DNA of 24,278 bases from a virus, in IMG/VR virus record IMGVR_UViG_3300010885_033421, positions 1 to 24,278 of that record; one strand, given 5' to 3'. Positions within the stretch are counted from its first letter, which is position 1; the number at the start of each line of letters is the position of its first letter. The notes beneath the pieces are model-generated. The model ran no database searches and was not told where the DNA came from. It worked only from the letters and a program-made list of their open reading frames with translations. The translations under genes and the position numbers were made by a program. This document shows positions 1,961-22,578 of the stretch, piece after piece.

Positions 1961-2061
1961 ACCCCCAATCCAGCGACTGTTCGTGCCCTGAGCCGTACCT
2001 TGACGAGGACGACTTCTGTTGGCGATGCGGCCGCCTCACGATGGAGACCACTGACGTATGA
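1957..2061 (+). CDS. Tiny Cys-rich (zinc-finger-like) protein
   Basis: This fills the 97 bases between the large terminase and portal genes. The frame encodes about 34 aa with four cysteines as C-x-C-x10-C-x2-C (CSC ... CWRC) and an acidic stretch between the pairs, a plausible single zinc-binding knuckle. Its TGA (2059-2061) overlaps the portal ATG (2058) as ATGA, the coupling used throughout this genome. There is no ATG, GTG or TTG close by. A CTG at 1957-1959 overlaps the terminase stop (CTGA), and the frame stays open upstream to an ATG at 1834 inside terL. Function is unknown; a role in head assembly or packaging is suggested only by position. It could be non-coding, but the regular Cys pattern argues against that. 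Confidence 0.45.
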   Translation: MNPQSSDCSCPEPYLDEDDFCWRCGRLTMETTDV

Positions 2062-3605
2062 CGACTCCTTTCAATCCAGCCGATCCGCGCAACGTGGTTG
2101 ACCCGAGCCGCAAGGACTCCCTCGCCACGTGGCAGGCGTTCTTCGGCATGCTGGAGCAGTCCACCGACCGCTACACCACGCGCTCCGACTGGGCCAAGGC
2201 GCCCGCCGACGAAGCGTTTGTCTTTAGCGCAGTACGACTCCGCGCCATGGCTGCGACGCAGCCACCGCTCCGCGTCTACGTCAAGCAGGGACACGACCTC
2301 GTCCCCTCCGACCTGACCAACGACACGGCGGCCAAAGAGTTGCAGCACCTGCTGGACTTTGTAAACCCGGACACAATGAGCGCGTCCGACCTGAAGGCGA
2401 CGCTGCTTTCATCTATCTCCGTCTACGGCGAGGCGTACCTCGTCAAGACCCGCGGTCGCCTTGGCGGTCGCCCGCAAGAGTTGCACTTCTTGAATCCCGC
2501 CGCCGTCTCGCCCGTCATGGGCGACCACTGGATTGACGCCTACGAGTATCGTCCAACGGGGACGAATAAGTTTTCAACCTATCTGCCAAAAGACATCGTC
2601 CCGTTCCGCACGCCGGGCAACTTTGTTGACCCGACACGCGGGCTCTCGCCCATGTCGGCAATCCGCAACGAGATCAGCACCTCACGCATGGCGGGCGAGC
2701 ATACGAATAATCAGCTCCGCAATCACGGCGTGCCTGCGGGCGTCTGGGTCGTCCCGAAGGACACCGAAGTCACACCGCAAGACCAGTCCGCCATTCGCCG
2801 CGTCCTTGCAAGCCTGCGCGGACCGCGCAACGCGGGCAAGACCGCCGTCCTTCCTGGCGGCCTGACCTGGCAGAATCTCGGACTCCCTGAAGCCGACGCG
2901 CAGTATCTGAACGCCCGCAAGATTAGCCGCATGGCAATTGGCGCAGCGTTCGGCATCCCGCTCGCCCTGCTCGGTGACGACGAGAAGACCGCCGTCTACC
3001 GCAGCATTCGCGACGCCGAGGAAATCTTCTGGCGCCGCTTCTCCTCCGAGCTGAACTGGGTTGCCTCAACGTTTGACTCGTGGCTCACGCCTGAGTTTGA
3101 CCCGACGGGCGATCACCTCACCGTTCGCTTTGACCTGAGCGCCATTGAGGCGCTGCGCCCATCGTTGCAAGAGCAGACGATGCTGTGGCAGTCACTACTT
3201 GACCGGGGCGTCGTGACGCCAAACGAGGCGCGCACGCACTTCGGCGTCGGGTTGCCAACCGAGTGGGGCGATAAGCCGATCCTCACCACGCAGGTCACCG
3301 TTCAGCCCGTCGTGGGCGCGACGCCGCAGATCGCGGAGGCGGTTCCCGTGGAGCAGCCAGTGGACGGCGAAGAGGTGCAACCTCTCGCGTCACTCGTGAT
3401 CCCCGCCGACCTGTACAAGCACCCCGCCGTCCGAGCATTCGTTGCCGGCGCACCCCTTGACGCAACCGCCCTCTTGGGCGGAGAGACAAGCACCAAGCAA
3501 GCCGAGGCGCTTGAGGTCGGCATTCGCCGGCGCTACACGCCGCAGCAAATCTCCGAAGGCGTCCCCGCAGAGGGCTTCCTCGGTCTAGCAGGAGAAACCC
3601 TATGA
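2058..3605 (+). CDS. Portal protein (HK97-type)
   Basis: Dodecameric ring protein at the capsid vertex through which DNA enters and leaves, and the docking site for terminase and connector. The 515-aa product carries typical HK97-type portal features: an N-terminal alpha/beta region, the segment LLSSISVYGEAYLVKTR around residues 115-131, LHFLNPAAVSPV near 143-154, and the clip-proximal segment NHGVPAGVWVVP near residue 220. Next comes ISRMAIGAAFGIPLALLGD near 290-310, as in portals that read fGVPp.ll. The C-terminal roughly 90 residues are Pro/Val-rich and probably variable. The start ATG overlaps the upstream small gene, and the stop overlaps the protease ATG (ATGA at 3602-3605), implying translational coupling. 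Confidence 0.93.
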   Translation: MTTPFNPADPRNVVDPSRKDSLATWQAFFGMLEQSTDRYTTRSDWAKAPADEAFVFSAVRLRAMAATQPPLRVYVKQGHDLVPSDLTNDTAAKELQHLLDFVNPDTMSASDLKATLLSSISVYGEAYLVKTRGRLGGRPQELHFLNPAAVSPVMGDHWIDAYEYRPTGTNKFSTYLPKDIVPFRTPGNFVDPTRGLSPMSAIRNEISTSRMAGEHTNNQLRNHGVPAGVWVVPKDTEVTPQDQSAIRRVLASLRGPRNAGKTAVLPGGLTWQNLGLPEADAQYLNARKISRMAIGAAFGIPLALLGDDEKTAVYRSIRDAEEIFWRRFSSELNWVASTFDSWLTPEFDPTGDHLTVRFDLSAIEALRPSLQEQTMLWQSLLDRGVVTPNEARTHFGVGLPTEWGDKPILTTQVTVQPVVGATPQIAEAVPVEQPVDGEEVQPLASLVIPADLYKHPAVRAFVAGAPLDATALLGGETSTKQAEALEVGIRRRYTPQQISEGVPAEGFLGLAGETL

Positions 3606-4672
3606 GCCTTAAGTACCTGAAACTCGACGACGGCTCCCTCCAGATTGAGGGCGTCGGCATTCCGTTTGGCGGCCCCGTTGCCGGCAAAGACCTCCACGGG
3701 CAGTTCTTCAGCGCGAAGACGGACTTTGCCTGGGACCTGATTCCCGACGGGCAACGCCCGCTCCTTTACCAGCACGGCCTCGACACCTCCGTAAAGACCG
3801 CCGTCATTGGACGCTGGTCGGTCAAGAAGGTGGACGACAAGGGCGTCTGGGTGCAGGCGCAACTCAACGCGCGCGCGGAATACCTTGACGAGATCAAGGA
3901 CCTCCTTGACTCCGACGCGCTTGGACTCTCTTCCGCCACGATGGGTCACCTCGTAAAGGTCTCCGCCAAGACGGGCGAGATTCTGCGCTGGCCCGTGGTT
4001 GAGTTGAGCCTCACCCCAAATCCAGCCAACCCTGCGGCGTATGTCGTCAAGACCGCCGAGGAGATTGAGGCGCCTGAGTACGTCTCCGCAAAGCTTGCCG
4101 TTCTTGGTGAGCCAGAGCCAGAAGAGGTACCAGCGCCCGAGAGCGAACCAACCCCAACCCCTGACGAGGTTCCCGCCGCTAAAGAGACGACGATTATCGT
4201 CGCAACCGATGCGGACATGGGCGAGTCAGAGGACAACGATTATGACAACGATGACTTTGAGACCTGGAGCGACGTTGCAAAGCACGCCGCTTCGTGCCTC
4301 ATTGAGTTGCTTGAGATGACCGACCTTGTGGTCGGGGATGCAGAGATGCAAGCGGCGCTTGACGCCGTCATCACCCCGCTTATGACTTACATCACGGCGT
4401 GCGAGCAGTACGCCGTCGCCGGTACTCCTCTTCCCGCTTCGGTCGACATGGCCGAGATGGTGGATGAGTCCGCACCGTTGGAGTTGGCGCAGCCAGCCCC
4501 GACGGCTTCCCTTGAAACTCTCCCAGAAGAGCCAGTGGCGCAACCTGTCGCCCGCCTCGCGATCATCGCGGGAACGAAGACGGAACGCACCCCAGCAAAC
4601 CTGGACGAGCTAAAAGCGCAAGTCCGAGCAATCGCTTTGGATGCCGCGCGCCAAACCCTTGAGCGCCGCTAG
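3602..4672 (+). CDS. Prohead protease with C-terminal scaffold-like extension
   Basis: HK97-type (U35/S78) capsid maturation protease, which in this family cleaves the scaffold or delta domain during head assembly. Residues 1-150 form the protease. Candidate catalytic His58 lies in YQHGLD, Ser110/111 in LGLSSATMGHL, and the conserved VVELSLTPNPANP (131-143) contains Glu134. Residues from about 150 to 356 are not protease. An acidic, Pro-rich linker (about 170-195) is followed by an acidic helical region and a basic C-terminal helix, which fits a fused scaffolding domain, although the downstream capsid protein also has a delta-like N-terminal region. The 356-aa length is about twice that of a bare protease. 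It is coupled to portal by ATGA and followed by a short gap with the capsid gene's ribosome binding site. Confidence 0.9.
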   Translation: MSLKYLKLDDGSLQIEGVGIPFGGPVAGKDLHGQFFSAKTDFAWDLIPDGQRPLLYQHGLDTSVKTAVIGRWSVKKVDDKGVWVQAQLNARAEYLDEIKDLLDSDALGLSSATMGHLVKVSAKTGEILRWPVVELSLTPNPANPAAYVVKTAEEIEAPEYVSAKLAVLGEPEPEEVPAPESEPTPTPDEVPAAKETTIIVATDADMGESEDNDYDNDDFETWSDVAKHAASCLIELLEMTDLVVGDAEMQAALDAVITPLMTYITACEQYAVAGTPLPASVDMAEMVDESAPLELAQPAPTASLETLPEEPVAQPVARLAIIAGTKTERTPANLDELKAQVRAIALDAARQTLERR

Positions 4673-4699: not shown

Positions 4700-5344
4700 A
4701 TGTCCGACTTCCTGTCGGCGGATGCGGTCAAGGACATCGTCAAGGACGCCGTTGGTGAAGCCGTCAAGGCCATCAACACCGTTGCCGACGAGGCCCGACC
4801 TGCAGCCGTCAAGAGCGTGAACGTCATTCGCCGAGCCTATGGCCTACCAAAGGTCGGGGTCGCAATGAAGGCGGTCACCCGCAGCAACAACAACGGCGCC
4901 GAGTTTGAGAAGGATTTCTCACAGGCAGCCTCCGAGCTGTTCGGTTACGGCGCTGACCGCGAAGGATCGCGTTCAATCGTCTGGCCAAAGAGCATGGACG
5001 AAGCCATTCAGGTTCTTGACGCCATGGGCGAAGGCAAGCATGCCGACCTCGTGAACACCGCCAAGGCCATGGCCGAAGGTTCCACGGGAACAGGCGGCGC
5101 GCTTGTTCCACCTCAGTATCTCCAGGAGGCGTTCGCTTACGCGCTCACCCCTGGGATCGTTGTCCGCAATCTTCCAGGCGTGACCGTCATGCCAGTGAAG
5201 ACCGGCACCACGGTCTACCTGCCACGAGAAGACGTCCGCGCCGGTGGCGCTTCGGCTGCTGAAGCCGCAAGCCTTTCCGCCCAGGACGTAACCTTCGCGC
5301 AGCAGGCTCTGACAATCAAGAAGCAGTACGGTCGTGAATACGCA
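4700..5344 (+). CDS. Major capsid protein, exon 1
   Basis: 5' part of the HK97-fold major capsid gene, read from ATG 4700 with AAGGAG (4687-4692) upstream. Residues 1-60 are helical and charged, like a delta or scaffolding domain. GGALVPPQYLQEAF (around residue 132-145) is the usual start of the mature HK97-fold subunit, followed by LPGVTVMPVKTGTTVYLPRE. Read without splicing, the frame hits TAG at 5354-5356 after 218 residues, in the middle of the fold. The homologous continuation, ELLADADPAW, resumes in the same frame at 5588. The end given here is the junction that yields ...GREYAF-SNELLAD...; because TTC occurs at both edges, the true junction could lie up to 3 bases further on without changing the protein. 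Confidence 0.88.
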
Positions 5345-5587
5345 TTCAGCGCGTAGCTGAATGTAAAGATAGCCGTAGTAAAATCTCCCGAAAATCGGTG
5401 AAGGTCTAGACCAGATAACACCGAGGCGAAAGTGCGAAAGCACCTGACCGTAGAGACTACCGGGCGACACTTCCATCATCGGATGGTTGTGAAGGTATAG
5501 TCCGAACTCCGTGGGGACACGGAGACGCTGGCAGAAATGATCAGCGGCACTCTTCATCTAAGAGTGGCTAACAGTGTGTATCGACAG
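5345..5587 (+). ncRNA. Group I intron in the major capsid gene
   Basis: A stretch of about 243 bases with no homology-bearing frame interrupts the capsid gene and folds by hand into a group I catalytic core. P1: 5343-5350 with 5356-5363, perfect 8 bp. P3: CCCG 5387-5390 with CGGG 5461-5464. P4: 5395-5400 with 5419-5424. P5: 5403-5405 with 5410-5412. P6a: GTGC/GCAC (5432-5443) with a GAAA loop. P7: GACTA 5455-5459 with TAGTC 5498-5502. P8: 5468-5477 with 5482-5491. P9: 7 bp, 5507-5513 with 5518-5524. A further hairpin lies at 5548-5566. GAAGGTATAGTCC (5491-5503) closely matches the conserved group I 'S' element. No endonuclease gene is present. Exact ends are uncertain by about 3 bases. Confidence 0.9.
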
Positions 5588-6268
5588 TTCTCAAACGAGC
5601 TTTTGGCTGACGCTGATCCAGCATGGAATCAGTTCATTACCAAGACGCTTCTTCGCGACGTCGCGCTGTACCAGGACGCTCAGTATCTTGAGGGTGCCGG
5701 CACCGGCAACTTCATCACTGGGTTCTCCGCTTACGGTTCAACCACCACTGGGCCAATCCCAGGAACGGCTGGCGGAACCAACGGCGGAACCATCACGCTC
5801 GATAATCTGCAGGACGCTGTATACAACCTCAGGGCTGTAAACGTCGAGCCGCAGCAGGGCTCAGGGTTCTTCATCATGCACCCGCGCACGCTGAACACTC
5901 TGACGAAGATCAAGGACACGACTGGAAACTACATCGTTTCCAACTTCCAGGGATACAACGCCCCGGCAATCTTTGGCGGCCAGCTTGCTGGTTCCAACGG
6001 GCCTAAGGCGATGATCCTCGGAGTGCCAGTTTACCTGACCTCGCAGATCGGAATCGCCAACACGGTTGGCACTTCGACAGACTGCTCGAACATCTACGTC
6101 GGCGATGCCAGCAAGGTCATCATCCTGGAGCGCGCAGGCATTGAGCTTGCGTTCAGCGACCAGGTTGGGTTCGCAAACGACCAGAGCGCATGGCGCGCCA
6201 TTGGCCGTTCGGCTGTGGCAGTGACCCAGCCAACCGCCCTCGAAGTGATCAAGGGCGTCCGCGCCTAA
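5588..6268 (+). CDS. Major capsid protein, exon 2
   Basis: 3' part of the capsid gene. It continues exon 1 in the same frame with FSNELLADADPAW, the SNELLADS-like segment that follows the E-loop and spine-helix region in HK97-fold capsid proteins. LRDVALYQDAQYLEGAGTGNFITGF follows, corresponding to the family's dxafl.G.G.p.Gi block. The rest contains NLQDAVYNLRAVNV, GFFIMHPRTLNTL and a C-terminal ERAGIELAFSDQVGFANDQSAWRA block, all typical of the A-domain and C-terminus. The spliced product is about 441 aa. An ATG at 5537 inside the intron opens the same frame but lacks a convincing Shine-Dalgarno site and would add intron-encoded residues, so I do not treat it as the start. The gene is followed by two hairpins. 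Confidence 0.88.
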   Translation, partial: FSNELLADADPAWNQFITKTLLRDVALYQDAQYLEGAGTGNFITGFSAYGSTTTGPIPGTAGGTNGGTITLDNLQDAVYNLRAVNVEPQQGSGFFIMHPRTLNTLTKIKDTTGNYIVSNFQGYNAPAIFGGQLAGSNGPKAMILGVPVYLTSQIGIANTVGTSTDCSNIYVGDASKVIILERAGIELAFSDQVGFANDQSAWRAIGRSAVAVTQPTALEVIKGVRA

Positions 6269-6355: not shown

Positions 6356-6994
6356 ATGTCCACTTCCTTTGGAACCTACGCGACCCTCACCGCCGTAAAA
6401 CAACGATTGGGGATTGGCGCCGCCGACACGACCGACAACGCAGAGATTCAGGTCATCTGCGACCAAGTCAATGGCTACATTGAGTCGCTGACGGGTCGCC
6501 CTATCTGCGACCTTGGCACCGCGACCTACACCTTTGACGGCTACGATTCGCTTGACAATCGCCTGCTCTTCGTGGACCGCGGCGTGCGCACCATCACCAG
6601 CCTTGAGACCGCCACCTACTCTGGCGGCTCGTTCTCCACCGTGCCGTCCACCGACTACTTCCTCCGCCCTGCAACGCAGGAGCTTGACCCAGGTTGGCCC
6701 TACACGCAAGTCCTCATGACCAACGTGCCAAGCGCGAACAACTACTCGCCGCTCTTCTACGCCGGGTACAACACCGTCCGCATCACGGGCACCTTTGGCT
6801 GGAGCCAAATTCCCGATGAAATCAAGGAGATTGGGGAGGTCATGGCGGTTCGTTCGTGGAGCGCGCGCCAGGCTGGTCAGACCGACCAGATTGGCGTGAG
6901 CGAGATGGGGCAACCCGTCATCTCCCGAACACTTTCCATCCGTGACCGCGAGACGCTCGCGCGGTATCGCGTGAAGCGCCCCGCAAAGATCTAG
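6356..6994 (+). CDS. Head-tail connector (gp6-like adaptor)
   Basis: Predicted adaptor that forms a ring below the portal. The 212-aa protein opens with a helix (YATLTAVKQRLGI) and an acidic helix ending GYIESLTGRPI. The mid region contains beta strands, and the closing block VRITGTFGWSQIPDEIKEIGEVMAVRSW is the hallmark of gp6-like connectors, where a beta strand and G[YF]G precede a long helix. The C-terminus (ISRTLSIRDRETLARYRVKR) fits the usual basic tail. A strong GAGGAG (6345-6350) sits 5 bases before ATG 6356. It lies between the capsid and the sugar cassette, the expected position for the first head-completion gene. Confidence 0.82.
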   Translation: MSTSFGTYATLTAVKQRLGIGAADTTDNAEIQVICDQVNGYIESLTGRPICDLGTATYTFDGYDSLDNRLLFVDRGVRTITSLETATYSGGSFSTVPSTDYFLRPATQELDPGWPYTQVLMTNVPSANNYSPLFYAGYNTVRITGTFGWSQIPDEIKEIGEVMAVRSWSARQAGQTDQIGVSEMGQPVISRTLSIRDRETLARYRVKRPAKI

Positions 6995-7053: not shown

Positions 7054-8310
7054 ATGCGCATCTCGTGGATCAGCAACGCTCCGTGGACCCCAACGGGCTA
7101 CGGACAACAGACGGCAGAGATCACCCCGCGCCTAAAGGCAGACGGTCACGAAGTGGCGGTCATGTCAAACTACGGCTTGGCGGGAACCATCTCCGACTGG
7201 AACGGCATTCCTGTTTATCCGCACGGGATGGACCCGTACTCCAACGACCTTGCCCCGTTCCAGGCGCAAGATTGGACGCACAAGAACACCAAGGGCTGGA
7301 CGATCTCGCTCTACGATTCGTGGGTCTTTAAGGGCCCAGGCTTTGAGGAGTTGAACATCGCCGCGTGGACGCCGATTGACCACCGCCCGGTTCCGCCTGC
7401 GGTCATGGGATTCTTTAACAGCGGCAAGGGGAAGCGCTACGCGATCGCCATGTCCAAGTTTGGCGAGCATGCGCTCCTTGACGCGGGGCTCCCCCGCGAG
7501 CGCGTCATGTATGCGCCGCACTGCATCAACACCAAGGTCTTTCGTCCCGTAAAGACCGAGATTCGCAAAGAGCTCGGCATTCCCGAGGACGTGCACCTGA
7601 CCACCATCAACGCTGCAAATAAGGGCAACGTTCCGATCCGCAAGTGCTGGCCCGAGATGTTGCTCGCGTGGCGCACCTTTGCCGAGACGCACACGGATGC
7701 TTGGCTGTATCTGCACACCGACGAGACGGGTGTTGCCAACGGCTTTAACATTCCGAGATTCTTGGAGCACATCAACGCGCCGATGGATCGCATCCGCATC
7801 GTGCCGCAGTACCCCTACAAGTTGGGACTTCCAAACACCACGGTCGCAAACATTCTCTCCGCGTCCGACGTCTACCTCTCCACAAGCCGTGGGGAAGGCT
7901 TTGGCATTGGGGTTATTGAAGCCCTCGCCTGCGCCGTCCCCGTGATCGTCACCGACTGGACCGCGCAGACCGAGCTTGCGGGCGTCGGCTGGAGGGTGGA
8001 CGGTCAGCCCGAGTGGGACGAGCATCAGCTCTCGTGGTGGAAGGTTCCCAACGTTGACATGATCATCCAGGCGCTGGAAGAGGCGTATGCGGCCCGGCAA
8101 GATTCCGAGCGCTGGGCAGCGATGCAGGCGGCAGCCGTCGCCTTCGCCGCCGACTACGACACCGCCCGCGTCTACGAAACGCACTGGAAGCCGATTCTGG
8201 CCCGTCTAAGCGCAGAAGTGGGTACCGACTCCACATTGACCCTTAACGCCCCGCAGTGGGGCGCAAATAGGGCTCAGCGGCGAGCCCTGAAGAGGGTCGG
8301 GAGCCGATAG
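7054..8310 (+). CDS. Glycosyltransferase, GT4-like (GT-B fold)
   Basis: Predicted retaining glycosyltransferase of 418 aa that transfers a sugar from a nucleotide-sugar donor; acceptor unknown. The N-terminus MRISWISNAPWTPTGYGQQT matches the GT-B opening with a Gly-rich acceptor loop. The donor-binding half contains the family's E-x7-E motif as EGFGIGVIE (Glu281 to Glu289), followed by ALACAVPVIVTD. VMYAPHCINTKVFRP (around 150-165) corresponds to the conserved viphGvDtevF segment. The C-terminal 40 residues include an Arg-rich tail ending RAQRRALKRVGSR. The strong AAGGAGGAGG before ATG 7054 suggests this is the lead gene of a coupled cassette: its stop TAG (8308-8310) overlaps the next GTG. 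Likely roles are decoration of virion proteins or alteration of host surface glycans. Confidence 0.85.
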   Translation: MRISWISNAPWTPTGYGQQTAEITPRLKADGHEVAVMSNYGLAGTISDWNGIPVYPHGMDPYSNDLAPFQAQDWTHKNTKGWTISLYDSWVFKGPGFEELNIAAWTPIDHRPVPPAVMGFFNSGKGKRYAIAMSKFGEHALLDAGLPRERVMYAPHCINTKVFRPVKTEIRKELGIPEDVHLTTINAANKGNVPIRKCWPEMLLAWRTFAETHTDAWLYLHTDETGVANGFNIPRFLEHINAPMDRIRIVPQYPYKLGLPNTTVANILSASDVYLSTSRGEGFGIGVIEALACAVPVIVTDWTAQTELAGVGWRVDGQPEWDEHQLSWWKVPNVDMIIQALEEAYAARQDSERWAAMQAAAVAFAADYDTARVYETHWKPILARLSAEVGTDSTLTLNAPQWGANRAQRRALKRVGSR

Positions 8311-8492
8311 TGCCGATCTACGAGTTTAAGTGCCCAGCCTGCGGCAAGGTTGAGCAGCGCATCCAGGTCAGCTACGAGCCGGTCAAGCCGCGCTGCGAGT
8401 GCGGCCCGTGGATGGTGCTGCAACTGGTCGCGACCCCCGTGCACTTTCAAGGCGACGGCTGGGCAAAGAAAGATCGACGGAGCGGCAAGTGA
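8310..8492 (+). CDS. Small zinc-ribbon protein (FmdB-like)
   Basis: A 60-aa protein starting MPIYEFKCPACGKVEQRIQ, the classic FmdB-type putative regulatory zinc ribbon (PxYeyxCxxCG). The first metal pair is C-x2-C (CPAC), and the second side, expected as C-x-C, is CEC in RCECGP. The C-terminus is basic. Start is GTG at 8310, sharing its G with the TAG of the preceding glycosyltransferase. The stop TGA overlaps the GTG of the next glycosyltransferase (GTGA). The biochemical role of this family is not settled. Sitting between two glycosyltransferases in one coupled unit, it may act as a partner or nucleic-acid-binding protein. Confidence 0.8.
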   Translation: MPIYEFKCPACGKVEQRIQVSYEPVKPRCECGPWMVLQLVATPVHFQGDGWAKKDRRSGK

Positions 8493-9043
8493 GCCTTCCA
8501 ATCACGGTCATCACCCCGAGCCTTCCCGCGCGCATCTCAGAACGAAGCCGCGCGATCACCTCGGTGCACGCGCAGACGCAGCGCCCCGAGGATCACCTCG
8601 TCCTCGTTGATCACCGCAAAGAGGGCGGGCATCGCCCGCTCAATGTGCTCATGCGAGCCGTGGAGACGGAGTGGACGCAGATCCTCTGCGACGATGACGC
8701 GCTAATGCCCGAGCACTTTGAGAAACTCTGGCCCCTGACCGCCGACGCCGACGTCGTCTACTCACCACCAACGACCATTGGACCAAATCCGTGGGCGGGC
8801 TACCTTGAACCCTTTGACGCAGGTCGCCTGCGCACCTCCTCCATCGTCAGCCACATCGCCCTCGTCCGCACCGAACTTATCCGCGAGGTTGGGGGCTGGG
8901 ATGCAGGCGCCGGGTACGACTGGAACTTCTGGGTCAAGTGCCTAGACGCGGGTGCGCGCTTTGCGCGATTCAACGAACCCACCTGGATCTACGATCTTGA
9001 GGAGGGCAAGTGGCACGAGAGCAGGCCCGACCTCGGGCGGTAA
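8489..9043 (+). CDS. Glycosyltransferase, GT2-like (GT-A fold)
   Basis: A 184-aa short GT-A glycosyltransferase. It opens with SLPITVITPSLPAR, the Rossmann-like first strand of family 2, and carries the metal/nucleotide-sugar DxD-type triad as CDDD (Asp68-Asp70) followed by ALMPEHFEKL. REVGGWDAG...YDWNFWVKCLDAG (about 130-155) fits the acceptor-site block usually written GGFDE...EDxDLxxRL. It is shorter than most family members (about 220-300 aa) and ends soon after this block. The start GTG 8489 overlaps the zinc-ribbon stop as GTGA; the frame is open further upstream, but that part is shadow. The last 34 bases overlap the next gene. Confidence 0.8.
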   Translation: MSLPITVITPSLPARISERSRAITSVHAQTQRPEDHLVLVDHRKEGGHRPLNVLMRAVETEWTQILCDDDALMPEHFEKLWPLTADADVVYSPPTTIGPNPWAGYLEPFDAGRLRTSSIVSHIALVRTELIREVGGWDAGAGYDWNFWVKCLDAGARFARFNEPTWIYDLEEGKWHESRPDLGR

Positions 9044-9636
9044 TCCTCGCCGCGGGTCGCAGCTCGCGACTGGGCGGCACGAACAAACTGCTCGTGGAAG
9101 CGGGCGGACAGCCGGTGCACGAGTGGCACCGCAAGGCACTCGCCGACTACGAGGTGAACGTCGTCGTCCGCCCGAATGACGCGCAAGCGGTGCGCGACGC
9201 GATGCCGTGGGTGCACCTCGTCGTGACGCATGACCGCTTTGACGGCCCAGGCGGTGCACTGCACTCGTACCTGGAACGCATTGACGAACCCGACGGGCTG
9301 CTCGTGCTCTTTGCCGACACGCTGCTCCGCGCCATCCCCGACGATTCAGGCGACTGGGTTGGCGTGGCGACGCCACCGGGGCGCGTGTGGGATTACTGGG
9401 ACGGCGACTGGATGCGCGGTGTGCCGCGCGTCAACGTCTGTGTCGGCGTCTACCACTTCGCCTGCACTGAGTGCCTAACGCGCTCCCTCGCGCTCCTCGT
9501 TGAGGGACTTGCCGTCGAGGTCTCCTTCGCCGATCTTCTGCGGCATTACAGCCGCGAGCACTACGTCAACCACACCCAGATCAACGACTGGCAAGACGCG
9601 GGCGATCCCGACGCTCTTGCCCGCGTTCAACCCTAA
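9010..9636 (+). CDS. Sugar nucleotidyltransferase-like (MobA-like NTP transferase)
   Basis: A 208-aa protein with the nucleotidyltransferase signature VILAAGRSSRLGGTNK at residues 11-26: the LAAGxxxRLG loop holds the NTP phosphates and Lys26 is the usual catalytic Lys. FADTLL contains Asp103, in the position of the metal-binding Asp of this fold (usually GD). NDWQDAGDPDAL near the C-terminus resembles the closing Asp-containing block of NTP_transferase proteins. It probably makes an activated sugar (NDP- or CMP-linked) for the two upstream glycosyltransferases; the actual sugar cannot be read from sequence. GTG 9010 is preceded by GGAGGG at 9001-9006 and lies inside the end of the GT2 gene (34-base overlap), so translation is coupled. 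Confidence 0.78.
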   Translation: MAREQARPRAVILAAGRSSRLGGTNKLLVEAGGQPVHEWHRKALADYEVNVVVRPNDAQAVRDAMPWVHLVVTHDRFDGPGGALHSYLERIDEPDGLLVLFADTLLRAIPDDSGDWVGVATPPGRVWDYWDGDWMRGVPRVNVCVGVYHFACTECLTRSLALLVEGLAVEVSFADLLRHYSREHYVNHTQINDWQDAGDPDALARVQP

Positions 9637-9649
9637 CAAGGAGGACCTC

Positions 9650-10003
9650 ATGGTCAGCAGCAACCTTTACACCTTGGAGATTCAGCAGGGCGCAACCCTG
9701 TCGCTGGTCGCAACGTGGAACGACTCTACGGGCGCAGCCATCAACCTGACCGGGTACACCGCGCGCCTTCAGGTGCGCACCTCGTACTCCGCAACCTCAA
9801 GCATCCTCAGCCTAACCAGTTCAAGCGGAATCGCCCTGGGCGGCACGGCTGGAACCATCACGATCACGGTCTCGGCAACCGATACCGCAGCGCTGACCGC
9901 GCCGTGGATCGGCGTCTACGATCTTGAGCTTGTCAGTGGCGGCGGCGTTGTCACCCGACTGTTGGAGGGTACGGCAACCGTTTCGCCAGAGGTCACTCGA
10001 TGA
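9650..10003 (+). CDS. Small beta-sandwich structural protein (BppU-N-like)
   Basis: A 117-aa, strand-rich protein starting SSNLYTLEIQQGATLSLVATW. The motifs qGxTfxl.w.d..G..inLTGyTArlqvR and gvYDLELVS...TRLLEGTATVSPEVTR match a small domain common in phage structural modules, similar to the N-terminal domain of BppU-type baseplate proteins. ATG 9650 has AAGGAGG (9638-9644) upstream; the longer frame back to 9500 overlaps the previous gene and is rejected. The stop TGA overlaps the fibre gene ATG (ATGA at 10000-10003), so it is made together with the fibre and probably forms the adaptor or attachment point for it. Fold call is by motif; the role is inferred. Confidence 0.7.
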   Translation: MVSSNLYTLEIQQGATLSLVATWNDSTGAAINLTGYTARLQVRTSYSATSSILSLTSSSGIALGGTAGTITITVSATDTAALTAPWIGVYDLELVSGGGVVTRLLEGTATVSPEVTR

Positions 10004-12171
10004 GCGTGACGGTGGTCAAGACCACGCAGACGGTCACCATCGTTGACGCCAACGGAACGGTGGTCGTCACGCCGATCACGCAGTCGGTCTCGCTGGCCTC
10101 CTCTGGCCCGCAGGGCGCAACGGGCGCCACGGTCGTCTCCGTCGCGGTCGGATCGACCACCACAGGTGCTGCTGGTACTTCCGCATCCGTTAGCAACTCA
10201 GGCACGTCTACTTCCGCTGTCCTAAACTTCACCATCCCACAGGGTATCCAAGGCGCCACAGGATCAACTGGTGCCACTGGCGCAGCGGGAAGCGCGGCGA
10301 CAATTTCGGTCGGAACCGTTACTACAGGGACCGCGGGATCAAATGCGACGGTCACGAACGCCGGCACGTCGGGCGCGGCAGTATTCAACTTCACCATTCC
10401 ACGCGGAGACACCGGCGCGCAGGGCAGTGCAGGAGCTCAGGGACCAAAGGGGGATACCGGTCTGACCGGTGCCACAGGCACGGCGGCGACAATTGCAATC
10501 GGAACCGTTAGCACAGGGACCGCGGGATCAAACGCAACAGTGACGAATTCGGGCAGCGCAGGTGCCGCGATCTTCGACTTCAGCATTCCAAGAGGTAATA
10601 CCGGATCGCAAGGCAGTGCCGGACCGCAAGGCGCACCAGGTGCAACGGGCACAGCCGCGACGATTACCGTCGGAACGGTTAGCACGGGAACCGCTGGGTC
10701 ATTGGCAACCGTAACCAATAGCGGCACGGCAGGGGCTGCGATTTTTGATTTCGCCATTCCACGCGGAGACACCGGGGCACAGGGCAGTGCAGGACCGCAG
10801 GGACCAGCGGGAACGGGAGTGCCGATCGGCGGCACCGCCGGTCAGGTGCTCGCAAAGATTGACGGCACCAATTACAACACGCAATGGACGACGCCAGCCA
10901 CAGGTACCGTCACGAGCGTCACAGGCACTGCGCCGATCGTATCATCTGGAGGCACGACTCCAGCCATTAGCGTCACCGCTGCATCAACTTCAGCCTCTGG
11001 CGTGGTGCAGTTGACGGACTCGACCAGCTCAACATCAACCACGACGGCAGCCACGCCAAACAGTGTCAAGACAGCCTACGACTTGGCAAACGGCGCAGTA
11101 CCAAAGTCGACTGTCACCACCAAGGGCGATCTCGTCGTTGCATCCGGCAACGCAGCAGTCGCTCGAGTTGGCGTTGGCGCTGACACCTATGTCTTGACCG
11201 CAGATTCAACCGCAACCAACGGCATCAAATGGGCTGCTAGTGGCGGCGGCGGAGTCACAAGCGTCACTGGCACTGCGCCGATTGTCTCGTCTGGCGGCAC
11301 GACTCCAGCCATCAGCGTCACGGCAGCATCAACATCAGCCGCTGGCGTTGTGCAGCTCAGTGATTCAACGAGTACCACGAGCAGCGTGCTTGCCGCTACG
11401 TCGACCGCAGTAAAAGCAGCAAAGGATGCTGCGGATGCAAAGGTCGCAACCGTTAGTGGCACGTCGCCAATCAGCACAAGCGGCACGACTGCAATCACGG
11501 TCAGCGTCAGCGCAGGATCAACCAGCGCGGCTGGCGTACTACAGCTCACTGACTCAACCAGCTCAACATCAACCACCACGGCGGCTACGCCAAATAGTGT
11601 GAAGGCCGCCTATGACATTGCAACCGCAGGTTGGGAGTTTTTCAACTTCGGTACCAGTGGAGTAGTTGCGAGCCATCCAAGGTTTGTGTTAACGACTACA
11701 AATTCGCTGAGTAACCAAGTCATTGTTTTCATTCGTTTGATGCCGCACAAAACAATTACGGTTTCCAGTATTGCAATGACCGCTGTCACCGCTGCGTCTG
11801 GAAGCACCCTGGTGCGAATGGGGATTTATACAAGGAGCGGCACGACGATGACGCTGGTTGCTAGAACTGCCAGTGATACAACCTTATTTGATACAGCAAC
11901 AACAAAGTATTCAAGATCGCTTTCGACAACAGGTGGGTATCCTTTGACCTATACCTTGAACCAAGGAACTGAATACTTTGTAGGAGTTATTTGGGTTGGA
12001 ACAACCACTGCTCCAACCGTTCTAGCGGCACTTGCAAGAGGGTCAGGTGCGATCGCGACAGTTGGCGCGGAAAGATACCAAAAGGCCGTTCAATCAGATT
12101 TGGGCGCAACAGTCTCAACCATTTCAACCAGCAGCGACACGACTGTTGTGCCTTATGCGGAGGTTTCCTGA
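10000..12171 (+). CDS. Collagen-like repeat fibre / receptor-binding protein
   Basis: A 723-aa fibre with clear modular build. Residues 1-40 are an N-terminal attachment region. Residues 44-270 hold four beta units of about 37 aa, each ending in [F/A/S]xIP[RQ]G, joined by Gly-x-Y collagen-like runs (such as GAQGSAGAQGPKGDTG), which should form a trimeric shaft. Residues about 300-540 contain three copies of a SVTGTAPIVSSGGTTPAISV ... VQLTDS ... AAYD-type module common in phage fibres. The C-terminal domain, about 545-723 (WEFFNFG onward), is unique, beta-rich and encoded by visibly more AT-rich DNA, as expected for an exchanged receptor-binding tip. It lies before the tail terminator gene rather than after the tape measure, so a head or neck fibre is possible. 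Confidence 0.85.
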   Translation: MSVTVVKTTQTVTIVDANGTVVVTPITQSVSLASSGPQGATGATVVSVAVGSTTTGAAGTSASVSNSGTSTSAVLNFTIPQGIQGATGSTGATGAAGSAATISVGTVTTGTAGSNATVTNAGTSGAAVFNFTIPRGDTGAQGSAGAQGPKGDTGLTGATGTAATIAIGTVSTGTAGSNATVTNSGSAGAAIFDFSIPRGNTGSQGSAGPQGAPGATGTAATITVGTVSTGTAGSLATVTNSGTAGAAIFDFAIPRGDTGAQGSAGPQGPAGTGVPIGGTAGQVLAKIDGTNYNTQWTTPATGTVTSVTGTAPIVSSGGTTPAISVTAASTSASGVVQLTDSTSSTSTTTAATPNSVKTAYDLANGAVPKSTVTTKGDLVVASGNAAVARVGVGADTYVLTADSTATNGIKWAASGGGGVTSVTGTAPIVSSGGTTPAISVTAASTSAAGVVQLSDSTSTTSSVLAATSTAVKAAKDAADAKVATVSGTSPISTSGTTAITVSVSAGSTSAAGVLQLTDSTSSTSTTTAATPNSVKAAYDIATAGWEFFNFGTSGVVASHPRFVLTTTNSLSNQVIVFIRLMPHKTITVSSIAMTAVTAASGSTLVRMGIYTRSGTTMTLVARTASDTTLFDTATTKYSRSLSTTGGYPLTYTLNQGTEYFVGVIWVGTTTAPTVLAALARGSGAIATVGAERYQKAVQSDLGATVSTISTSSDTTVVPYAEVS
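10129..10809 (+). repeat. Four collagen-linked beta repeats in the fibre gene
   Basis: In-gene tandem repeat: protein units start near residues 44, 100, 163 and 220, giving periods of about 56-63 codons. DNA identity between units is high in places (for example ACAGGGACCGCGGGATCAAA occurs in units 2 and 3), which would allow unit number to change by recombination. The first unit is the most diverged. Confidence 0.8.
10905..11625 (+). repeat. Three copies of a fibre shaft module
   Basis: Copies begin near 10905, 11251 and 11442. They share GTxPI-SxSGTT-AIxV...SAxGVxQLxDSTS followed by a helical AAT...VKxAxD segment. Between copies 1 and 2 lies an insert (KSTVTTKGDLVVASGN...) of a type widespread in phage fibres. 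Parts of copies 1 and 3 (CAGCTCAACATCAACCAC) are identical at DNA level. Confidence 0.75.
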
Positions 12172-21245: not shown

Positions 21246-21427
21246 CTCGCAACCAGGTAGATGCAATCATTGAGCGCCTTGACGCGCAGAGCGAAAAGAT
21301 TGACCGCCTTCAGTCCCAGCTTGACCAGATGAAGGGCGGCCTCACCGTCCTCAAGGGAATTGGCGCCTTTTTGGGAGTCTCGGGTGTTGGCGCCCTGCTT
21401 GCCTGGCTTCAGTCCCAAGGTAAATGA
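21242..21427 (+). CDS. Coiled-coil plus membrane-segment peptide
   Basis: A 61-aa protein. Residues 1-35 form an amphipathic heptad coil (VDAIIERLDAQSEKIDRLQSQLDQM). Residues about 36-57 form a hydrophobic segment (LTVLKGIGAFLGVSGVGALLAWL), and the tail is SQGK. This layout resembles XhlA-type lysis accessory proteins and other small phage membrane proteins at the start of lysis cassettes. It is coupled on both sides by ATGA overlaps (21242-21245 and 21424-21427). Family membership is not certain. Confidence 0.6.
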   Translation: MTRNQVDAIIERLDAQSEKIDRLQSQLDQMKGGLTVLKGIGAFLGVSGVGALLAWLQSQGK

Positions 21428-22578
21428 AACGCGTTGCGTTCCCGCTCCTCGGTCTGATCTTCACCACAATCTTCTTCCTTCCGATCGTCCGAGCTGAAGA
21501 GCCGCCGCAGCCAGGCGTGACGATGACCGTCTACAGCGGCTTCACCGCGCAGGCATTTCACCCGTGGGAGACGCCGCCTGATTGGGAGCCGTGCTACGTC
21601 GCCGTCGTCCCGAACATTGACTTTGACTGGGGTGGAGGCGTCGTCTCCGACGGTTGCCCACGCGACCAGTTCATGGTGCACTTCTCTGGCTGGCTTACCG
21701 TTCCAGAAAGCGGCCAATGGGAGTTCCTCAACTGGAGCGATGACGGCTGGTACATGACGCTGGACGGCGTGGTGACCATTGACGACTGGAATTTCCACGG
21801 TTGCGGCGGGCACTGGTCGGGACCGAACGAGGGCTACTCGCAACTGGTCGCCGCTCAGTCCTACGCACTAGACGTCTGGATGTTTGAGTGGGGTGGTGGC
21901 GCGTGCGCACGCCTTGACTACGGATCACCAAGCGGCTACGGCACTGTCCCGCCTGCGTGGCTCACCACTTCCCCACTGCCAATCCCTGAACCATCGCCGT
22001 CGGTTGAACCGTCAACGGAGGCAACGCCAAGCCCGACGCCAACTGAGGAGCCGACCATTGACCCATCACCAACCGAATCTCCAACACCGGACCCGACTGC
22101 CACACCCGAGCCGACGCCCGAACCGTCACCATCCGTGGAACCTACGCCAATTGCTACGCCTGAACCTACTCCTAGCGCTACTCCTACTCCTCGCCCTGGT
22201 CCTTCAGAAGTCGTAAGCCCGTCGCCTACCGCGACACCTACGCCAACACCACCGCCGACGCCATCACCGTCACCGATTGAGTCCTCATCACCTGATCCGT
22301 CTCCTGCAGCGTCGCCTTCGATGGAGCCCACACCTACGCCTACAGAAACACCGCAGCCTCCGGCAAATGCCGTTGAGGCCGTATCGCAAGCGGTAGACGC
22401 GGCAACGAAAGCGGTTGCTGAGGCGGTCGGCGCCGCGGTCTCAAAGATCACCAAGCTCGGGCAAGACCTCAGCCCCGCGCAGAAAGCCAAAGCGCGCCCC
22501 GTCGCCGTCGCGCTGGTCATCTCCCAAATCGCATCCGCAGCGGCAGCGGCTGCAACCAACATCCGAAAGGCGAAATGA
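21424..22578 (+). CDS. Secreted PA14-like protein with Pro/Thr-rich stalk
   Basis: A 384-aa protein. Residues 1-24 form a signal peptide (KR, then a hydrophobic core, then VRA before EE). Residues about 32-175 resemble a PA14 carbohydrate-binding domain: VHFSGWLTVPESGQWEFLNW, then SDDGWYMTLDGVVTIDDW and a closing YALDVWMFEWGGGACARLDY. Four cysteines (57, 78, 127, 161) could form two disulfides, which fits export. Residues about 185-338 are a low-complexity stalk of P-[TS]-P-x repeats. Residues about 339-384 are Ala-rich and helical, with a moderately hydrophobic segment and a basic end. It is coupled to the peptide upstream by ATGA and is followed by the holin candidate. A virion, cell-surface or lysis role are all possible. 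Confidence 0.75.
   Translation: MKRVAFPLLGLIFTTIFFLPIVRAEEPPQPGVTMTVYSGFTAQAFHPWETPPDWEPCYVAVVPNIDFDWGGGVVSDGCPRDQFMVHFSGWLTVPESGQWEFLNWSDDGWYMTLDGVVTIDDWNFHGCGGHWSGPNEGYSQLVAAQSYALDVWMFEWGGGACARLDYGSPSGYGTVPPAWLTTSPLPIPEPSPSVEPSTEATPSPTPTEEPTIDPSPTESPTPDPTATPEPTPEPSPSVEPTPIATPEPTPSATPTPRPGPSEVVSPSPTATPTPTPPPTPSPSPIESSSPDPSPAASPSMEPTPTPTETPQPPANAVEAVSQAVDAATKAVAEAVGAAVSKITKLGQDLSPAQKAKARPVAVALVISQIASAAAAAATNIRKAK
21980..22370 (+). repeat. Low-complexity Pro/Thr/Ser-rich coding repeat
   Basis: In-gene degenerate repeat encoding P-[ST]-P-[ST]-x-E-P units in the stalk of the PA14-like protein. Codons are mixed (CCA, CCG, CCT, CCC), so the repetition is at protein rather than DNA level, which suggests selection for a stiff extended stalk and not recent slippage. 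The middle (about 22140-22220) uses more CCT/ACT codons than its surroundings. Confidence 0.7.

What the first reader, a model, noticed from the sequence alone, without database searches (positions are those of the whole stretch)
5345..5590. Small group I intron without homing endonuclease interrupts the major capsid gene
The two halves of one HK97-fold capsid protein are separated by about 243 bases that fold into P1, P3, P4, P5, P6a, P7, P8 and P9, with a near-consensus P7/J8-7 strand. Phage group I introns are usually reported in genes such as polymerase, ribonucleotide reductase, thymidylate synthase, lysin or terminase, often with an endonuclease gene. One in the most heavily expressed structural gene, in a near-minimal size and with no endonuclease, is unusual and ties virion production to self-splicing.
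Basis: partly seen in the sequence, partly recalled or inferred. Interest (0 to 1): 0.85.

Follow-up and report, generated by a model that had tools for sequence, protein, structure and literature searches.

The report
Group I intron in phage capsid gene
A 246-base self-splicing RNA (a group I intron with no homing enzyme gene) interrupts the main shell-protein gene of an uncultured phage; it is a well-supported new example of a known kind, and it belongs to a little-described group of similar small introns that sit repeatedly in phage shell and tail genes.

Summary
Confirmed, with corrected boundaries. The capsid gene (4700-6268) is split by a 246-nt group I intron at 5333-5578, not 5345-5590. 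Seven uninterrupted capsid homologues covering the junction (78-95% aa identity per half) join at exactly this point. Removing 5333-5578 restores a gap-free 440-aa HK97-type capsid protein. Exon 1 ends in U and the intron ends in G. A single guide sequence (GAUAGCCGUA, 5368-5377) pairs with both exon ends; among all U/G site pairs tried, only this one fits.

Rfam RF00028 matches over its full length (27.8 bits, E=1.8e-5) but below its gathering score. A covariance model built from 14 relatives without the window scores the window at 82 bits, E=3e-25. P3-P9 are supported by strong covariation; no homing endonuclease was recognised in the window.

The claimed oddity is weaker than stated. Capsid-gene group I introns are published for mycobacteriophage LittleE (RT-PCR), Tuc2009 (as cited there) and crAss-like phages, and an endonuclease-less tail-gene intron for BAKA. 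New here is context: the window's intron is a divergent member of a clade of small introns that recur in major head and major tail genes, usually with an early in-frame stop. Splicing itself is inferred.

The parts
4700..5332 (+). exon 1 of the major capsid gene (211 codons, ends ...AAG CAG TAC GGT)
   Evidence: homologues 78-89% aa identical, uninterrupted across the junction; PHROG major head protein E 7e-7 for the fragment 4700-5353
5333..5578 (+). group I intron, 246 nt, preceded by U, last base G
   Evidence: RF00028 27.8 bits over model 1-253; window-free covariance model 82 bits E=3.4e-25; unique guide-sequence solution; absent from homologues
5579..6268 (+). exon 2 of the major capsid gene (TAT CGA CAG ... 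stop)
   Evidence: PF05065 Phage_capsid E 2e-31; HK97 capsid structures matched across the junction by the spliced-protein profile
5327..5332 (+). P1 exon strand UACGGU, with U.G wobble at the splice site
5342..5364 (+). 9-bp hairpin with loop GCGUA inside the P1 loop
   Evidence: minimum-energy fold, z -4.5 for 5318-5385
5354..5356 (+). in-frame stop UAG closing exon-1 translation, in the loop and first closing base of the hairpin
   Evidence: first in-frame stops lie similarly early in most related introns
5368..5377 (+). internal guide sequence GAUA (P10 with exon 2 UAUC) + GCCGUA (P1)
5385..5390 (+). P3 5' strand; pairs with 5461-5466
5395..5424 (+). P4 (5395-5399/5420-5424) enclosing P5 (5404-5407/5413-5416)
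5425..5449 (+). P6 (5425-5426/5448-5449) and P6a with GAAA tetraloop (5432-5435/5440-5443)
5455..5502 (+). P7 (5455-5459/5498-5502), enclosing P3' (5461-5466) and P8 (5468-5491); J8/7 AAGGUA
5507..5524 (+). P9 with GGGA (GNRA) tetraloop
5526..5566 (+). P9.1 (5526-5531/5541-5546, loop CAGAAAUGA) and P9.2 (5548-5554/5560-5566)
5569..5578 (+). 3' end UAACAGUGUG; UAACA invariant in the aligned relatives, terminal G

Best explanation
The insert is a group I self-splicing intron of 246 nt (5333-5578) in the major capsid gene of a tailed phage known from an environmental contig. Proposed mechanism: ribosomes translate exon 1 and stop at the UAG in the hairpin of the P1 loop, 8 codons past the splice site, so they do not enter the catalytic core. 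The core (P3-P9) folds. P1 docks the exon end UACGGU on GCCGUA; a guanosine bound in P7 attacks after U5332; P10 (GAUA with UAUC) aligns exon 2; the released exon attacks after G5578. The ligated mRNA encodes a 440-aa HK97-type capsid protein. Shown here: homology, the exact intronless junction, guide-sequence fit, conserved core with covariation, and no recognised endonuclease gene in the window. Inferred: that it splices, that it does so unaided, and that the stop codon protects folding.
For: Uninterrupted homologues join at exactly Gly211|Tyr212. U at the 5' site, G at the 3' end and one 10-nt guide sequence matching both exons; among all U/G pairs within the 110-nt search ranges only (5332, 5578) fits, it is in frame, and Markov-shuffled introns contain it with frequency 2.8e-4. 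RF00028 full-length match. Window-free model of relatives gives E=3.4e-25 and no match in intronless loci L001-L003. Covariation: 41 of 48 pairs change on both sides, 94% of cells paired against 69% in shuffles, 0/500; the window itself has 16 two-sided compensations and 2 non-standard pairs out of 48. Plain folding recovers P1. Full-length HK97 capsid homology spans the junction.
Against: RF00028 stays below its gathering score. P3 has one U-C mismatch and P5 fits the family poorly. The window is about 60% identical to its nearest relatives. The relatives were fetched by P7-region patterns, so similarity there is by construction. The CM-derived alignment leans towards the structure. No transcript, ribozyme or virion data exist; a splicing-defective remnant cannot be excluded from sequence alone.
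Confidence: 0.95

Rival explanations
1. Decayed or pseudogenised capsid gene: the insert is a dead intron or a random insertion and the capsid is not made from this locus.
For: No expression data; one P3 mismatch.
Against: Both exons are open and 78-92% identical to homologues with no other lesion; the RNA core, guide sequence, U and G ends are all intact; no other capsid gene was recognised in the 24-kb window.
Confidence: 0.03
2. Two separate proteins: exon 1 and exon 2 are independently translated and assemble as a split capsid protein (the insert only looks like an intron).
For: Both halves are open reading frames; an ATG at 5537 is in frame with exon 2.
Against: Every homologue is one chain; the break falls inside the HK97 fold; the 5537 ATG lies in a conserved RNA loop (CAGAAAUGA) and no clear ribosome-binding site precedes it; a guide-sequence match to both exon ends would be unexplained.
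Confidence: 0.01
3. Translational bypass like T4 gene 60 rather than RNA splicing.
For: A stop codon lies next to a stable hairpin soon after the exon end.
Against: 246 nt is far longer than the ~50-nt T4 gap (own knowledge); a complete covarying group I core is present.
Confidence: 0.01

Closest known systems
Capsid-gene intron of mycobacteriophage LittleE (PMC3706429)
   Same: interrupts the major capsid gene; U at exon end, G at intron end; spliced out (RT-PCR, N-terminal sequencing)
   Different: about 820 nt with a reverse-strand LAGLIDADG-like endonuclease; group I assignment there was tentative
Tail-gene intron of mycobacteriophage BAKA (PMC3706429)
   Same: 265 nt, no endonuclease gene, virion structural gene, U/G ends
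   Different: minor tail protein gene; not known to share the P3-P9 sequence found here (not compared)
Group I introns in MCP genes of crAss-like phages, Delta and Zeta groups (PMC7886860)
   Same: group I introns inserted in the major capsid gene
   Different: identified through intron-encoded endonuclease domains, up to four insertions per gene, different hosts
Small (~206 nt) group I introns of Jug phages (PMC12363816)
   Same: small introns; splicing supported by metatranscriptome reads for 37 of 76
   Different: huge Bacteroides phages; named examples are terL and nrdD
Related introns in IMG/VR contigs found here (e.g. L031, L059, L096, L107, L125 in major head genes; L045 type in a major tail gene)
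   Same: same P3-P9.2 architecture, UAACA near the 3' end, early in-frame stop
   Different: in the related introns examined closely (L031, L045, L059) P1 lies before a separate P2 hairpin; in the window the hairpin lies inside the P1 loop, and the core is only ~60% identical

Membership tests
Group I intron (Rfam RF00028) | match to the family covariance model | tested here: met
   full-length match 1-253, 27.8 bits, E=1.8e-5 on 271 nt, but below the curated 50-bit gathering score
Group I intron (Rfam RF00028) | P3-P9 core with P7 guanosine site and P3/P7 pseudoknot | tested here: met
Group I intron (Rfam RF00028) | U at end of exon 1 paired to G of the guide sequence; terminal G of intron | tested here: met
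Group I intron (Rfam RF00028) | precise exon junction equals intronless homologues | tested here: met
Group I intron (Rfam RF00028) | GTP-dependent self-splicing | not testable with these tools
   no RNA data available
Mobile (homing) group I intron | intron-encoded endonuclease | tested here: not met
   no reading frame of useful size inside 5333-5578; no endonuclease domain among the window proteins scanned
HK97-type major capsid protein | family profile match of the interrupted gene | tested here: met
   PF05065 E 2e-31 on exon 2; HK97 gp5 structures matched over residues 151-348, across the junction

The most novel reading that the evidence does not exclude
The intron belongs to a clade of small group I introns, mostly without endonuclease genes, that settles preferentially in phage major head and major tail genes at many different sites, keeps an in-frame stop codon shortly after the 5' splice site, and spreads without its own endonuclease (by trans-acting endonucleases or reverse splicing); the window shows a variant in which the stop-bearing hairpin has moved into the P1 loop.
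Probability: 0.4. Interest if true: 0.6.

Novelty: new member of a known kind. Interest (0 to 1): 0.42.

Why it matters
It is a clean, testable case in which the most abundant virion protein should be made only after self-splicing, with homologous intronless alleles as controls. It also led to a group of similar introns in capsid and tail genes of environmental phages. That bears on how endonuclease-less introns persist and move, and on annotation: such capsid genes look truncated, and RF00028 at its default threshold misses this one.

Tried and rejected
Rfam at the gathering threshold on the whole window, and the permissive search on 551 nt, gave nothing; the shorter 271-nt search gave the match. 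Three tight core patterns found no relatives in IMG/VR and one found none in bacterial genomes. The capsid alignment found no prophage relative in bacterial genomes, so the host is unknown. Distant DNA search found only one significant match, 40 nt of P7-P9, in an intron near the RNA polymerase gene of a Burkholderia phage, and nothing in plasmids. Recent intragenic copying of introns was considered: copies within one locus are 66-86% identical, and several of the most diverged copies in multi-intron genes resemble introns of other phages more (e.g. L125_3439 with L112_2125 and L115_11743), so recent copying is not supported overall, though the L110 pair are each other's best match.

Full report
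OBSERVATION. ORFs 4700-5356 and 5537-6268 carry two parts of one major capsid protein: PHROG major head profiles on both parts, and Pfam PF05065 (E 2e-31) on the second, starting at profile position 81. Around them lie terminase (182-1960), portal (2058-3605), a head-tail adaptor (6356-6994) and tail genes, i.e. an ordinary tailed-phage structural module. The window is a 24,278-base virus record.

BOUNDARIES. Eight IMG/VR contigs carry close capsid homologues (78-92% aa identity per half over most matches, up to 95% on one short end); seven cover the junction and all are uninterrupted there. They read ...KKQYG-YR.FSNELLADADP..., i.e. AAGCAGTA[C/T]GG[A/C] TAC CG. The window has AAGCAGTACGGT, then 246 extra bases, then TATCGACAG. 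Removing 5333-5578 gives a 440-aa protein that aligns without a gap at the junction (85-90% identity). A profile of the spliced protein and three homologues matches HK97 gp5 structures over residues 151-348, which span the junction at 211/212.

SPLICE-SITE CHEMISTRY. Exon 1 ends in U (5332) and the insert ends in G (5578). One guide sequence, GAUAGCCGUA at 5368-5377, pairs with the last six bases of exon 1 (UACGGU, with the U.G wobble at the splice site) and the first four of exon 2 (UAUC, P10). Trying every U/G pair of sites in 5290-5399 x 5530-5639, only 5332/5578 has such a 10-nt match, and it is in frame; Markov-shuffled introns contain the sequence with frequency 2.8e-4. Energy folding alone forms this P1, with a 9-bp hairpin in its loop (z -4.5). 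The intronless relatives have GGA/GGC TAC at this place, which would not fit the guide sequence.

RIBOZYME CORE. RF00028 matches 5338-5524 over its whole length (27.8 bits, E 1.8e-5); this is under the 50-bit gathering score, so default annotation misses it. Pattern search with the P7/J8-7 motif brought 71 phage contigs, among them a set with the same layout from P3 to P9.2 and UAACA near the 3' end. A covariance model from 14 of these, without the window, gives 82 bits (E 3.4e-25) at 5378-5578, the only match in the window, and none in the intronless loci L001-L003. On 26 sequences, with P7 added as a pseudoknot, 94% of cells pair (69% in shuffles), 41 of 48 pairs change on both sides, 0/500 shuffles reach this, and slid controls collapse. 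The window alone has 16 two-sided compensations, 2 non-standard pairs and 4 gapped pairs out of 48. Caveats: P7 similarity is partly by selection, and the alignment is fitted to the structure.

MECHANISM. Established group I chemistry (own knowledge; review PMC3984707) predicts guanosine attack at U5332 and exon ligation at G5578. The reading frame of exon 1 stops at UAG 5354-5356, in the hairpin that precedes the core. The same review notes that in-frame stops early in such introns are viewed as a way to keep ribosomes off the ribozyme. In the related introns the first in-frame stop is usually in the corresponding region: in 39 distinct contexts, 18 end ..AA-stop and 25 end in A-stop; a few contexts have a wrongly chosen upstream frame. 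This is a pattern, not a test of function. No endonuclease domain was found among the window proteins scanned, and none fits in the intron. How this intron moved is unknown; trans-acting endonucleases for ORF-less introns are known in phages.

CONTEXT AND NOVELTY. Prior reports: an intron in the capsid gene of mycobacteriophage LittleE, verified by RT-PCR, with an endonuclease gene; an endonuclease-less 265-nt intron in a tail gene of BAKA; a capsid intron of Tuc2009 cited there (PMC3706429); group I introns in MCP genes of crAss-like phages (PMC7886860); thousands of ~206-nt introns in Jug phages (PMC12363816). So neither capsid location nor small size nor lack of an endonuclease is new singly. 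A second core pattern (P4-P6-P7) found 51 contigs. PHROG assigns the interrupted genes to major head proteins in L031, L042, L047, L052, L059, L072, L093, L096, L099, L101, L102, L107-L111, L113-L115, L117, L119, L121 and L125 (L112 and L123 not scanned; L112 dropped for its uncertain frame), and to a major tail protein in the L045 type; a minority are other genes (L118, L124: helicase-like or unknown; L105/L063: phrog_13692, unknown function). Several capsid-gene loci hold two or three such introns. The searches selected on the RNA core, not on the gene, but no systematic comparison with other gene classes was made, so preference for structural genes is suggestive only. The window's copy is divergent (about 60% identity to the nearest).

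VERDICT. The finding is right in kind; the coordinates and P1 need correction, and its rarity was overstated. New member of a known kind, with an interesting group behind it.

Noticed in passing
L031, L042, L045, L059, L072, L096, L099, L101, L102, L107-L111, L113-L115, L117, L119, L121, L125: Many small group I introns sharing one core, mostly without endonuclease genes, interrupt phage major head or major tail genes at many different sites, with the first in-frame stop at a similar early position.
   Followed up: partly
L125, L112, L108, L110, L113, L115, L105: Two or three related introns in or around one capsid-gene locus; several copies resemble same-type introns in other phages more than each other.
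   Followed up: partly
L015:534-1530: Four group I intron matches packed into a 1.5-kb stretch; host gene not determined.
   Followed up: no
L042:2619-3260: A capsid gene with a first intron lacking an endonuclease and a second one followed by a GIY-YIG homing endonuclease frame; possible help in trans.
   Followed up: no
L010:2358-2540 (Burkholderia phage vB_BpP_HN02): Unannotated group I intron match between ORF21 and ORF22, near a gene annotated RNA polymerase 2; shares the P7-P9 sequence with the window intron.
   Followed up: partly
window 7054-9636: Glycosyltransferase genes and a MobA-like nucleotidyltransferase lie inside the structural module, between head-tail and tail genes.
   Followed up: no
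window 10000-12171: Predicted tail fibre with collagen-like Gly-X-Y stretches and three Phage_fiber_2 repeats (PF03406).
   Followed up: no
window 21424-22578: Protein with a PA14 domain followed by a long Pro/Ser/Thr-rich repeat tract.
   Followed up: no
window 3602-4672: No Pfam match, but the sequence reads like a prohead protease (GLSSATMGH, ELSLTPNPANPAA) with an extended C-terminal, possibly scaffold-like part.
   Followed up: no
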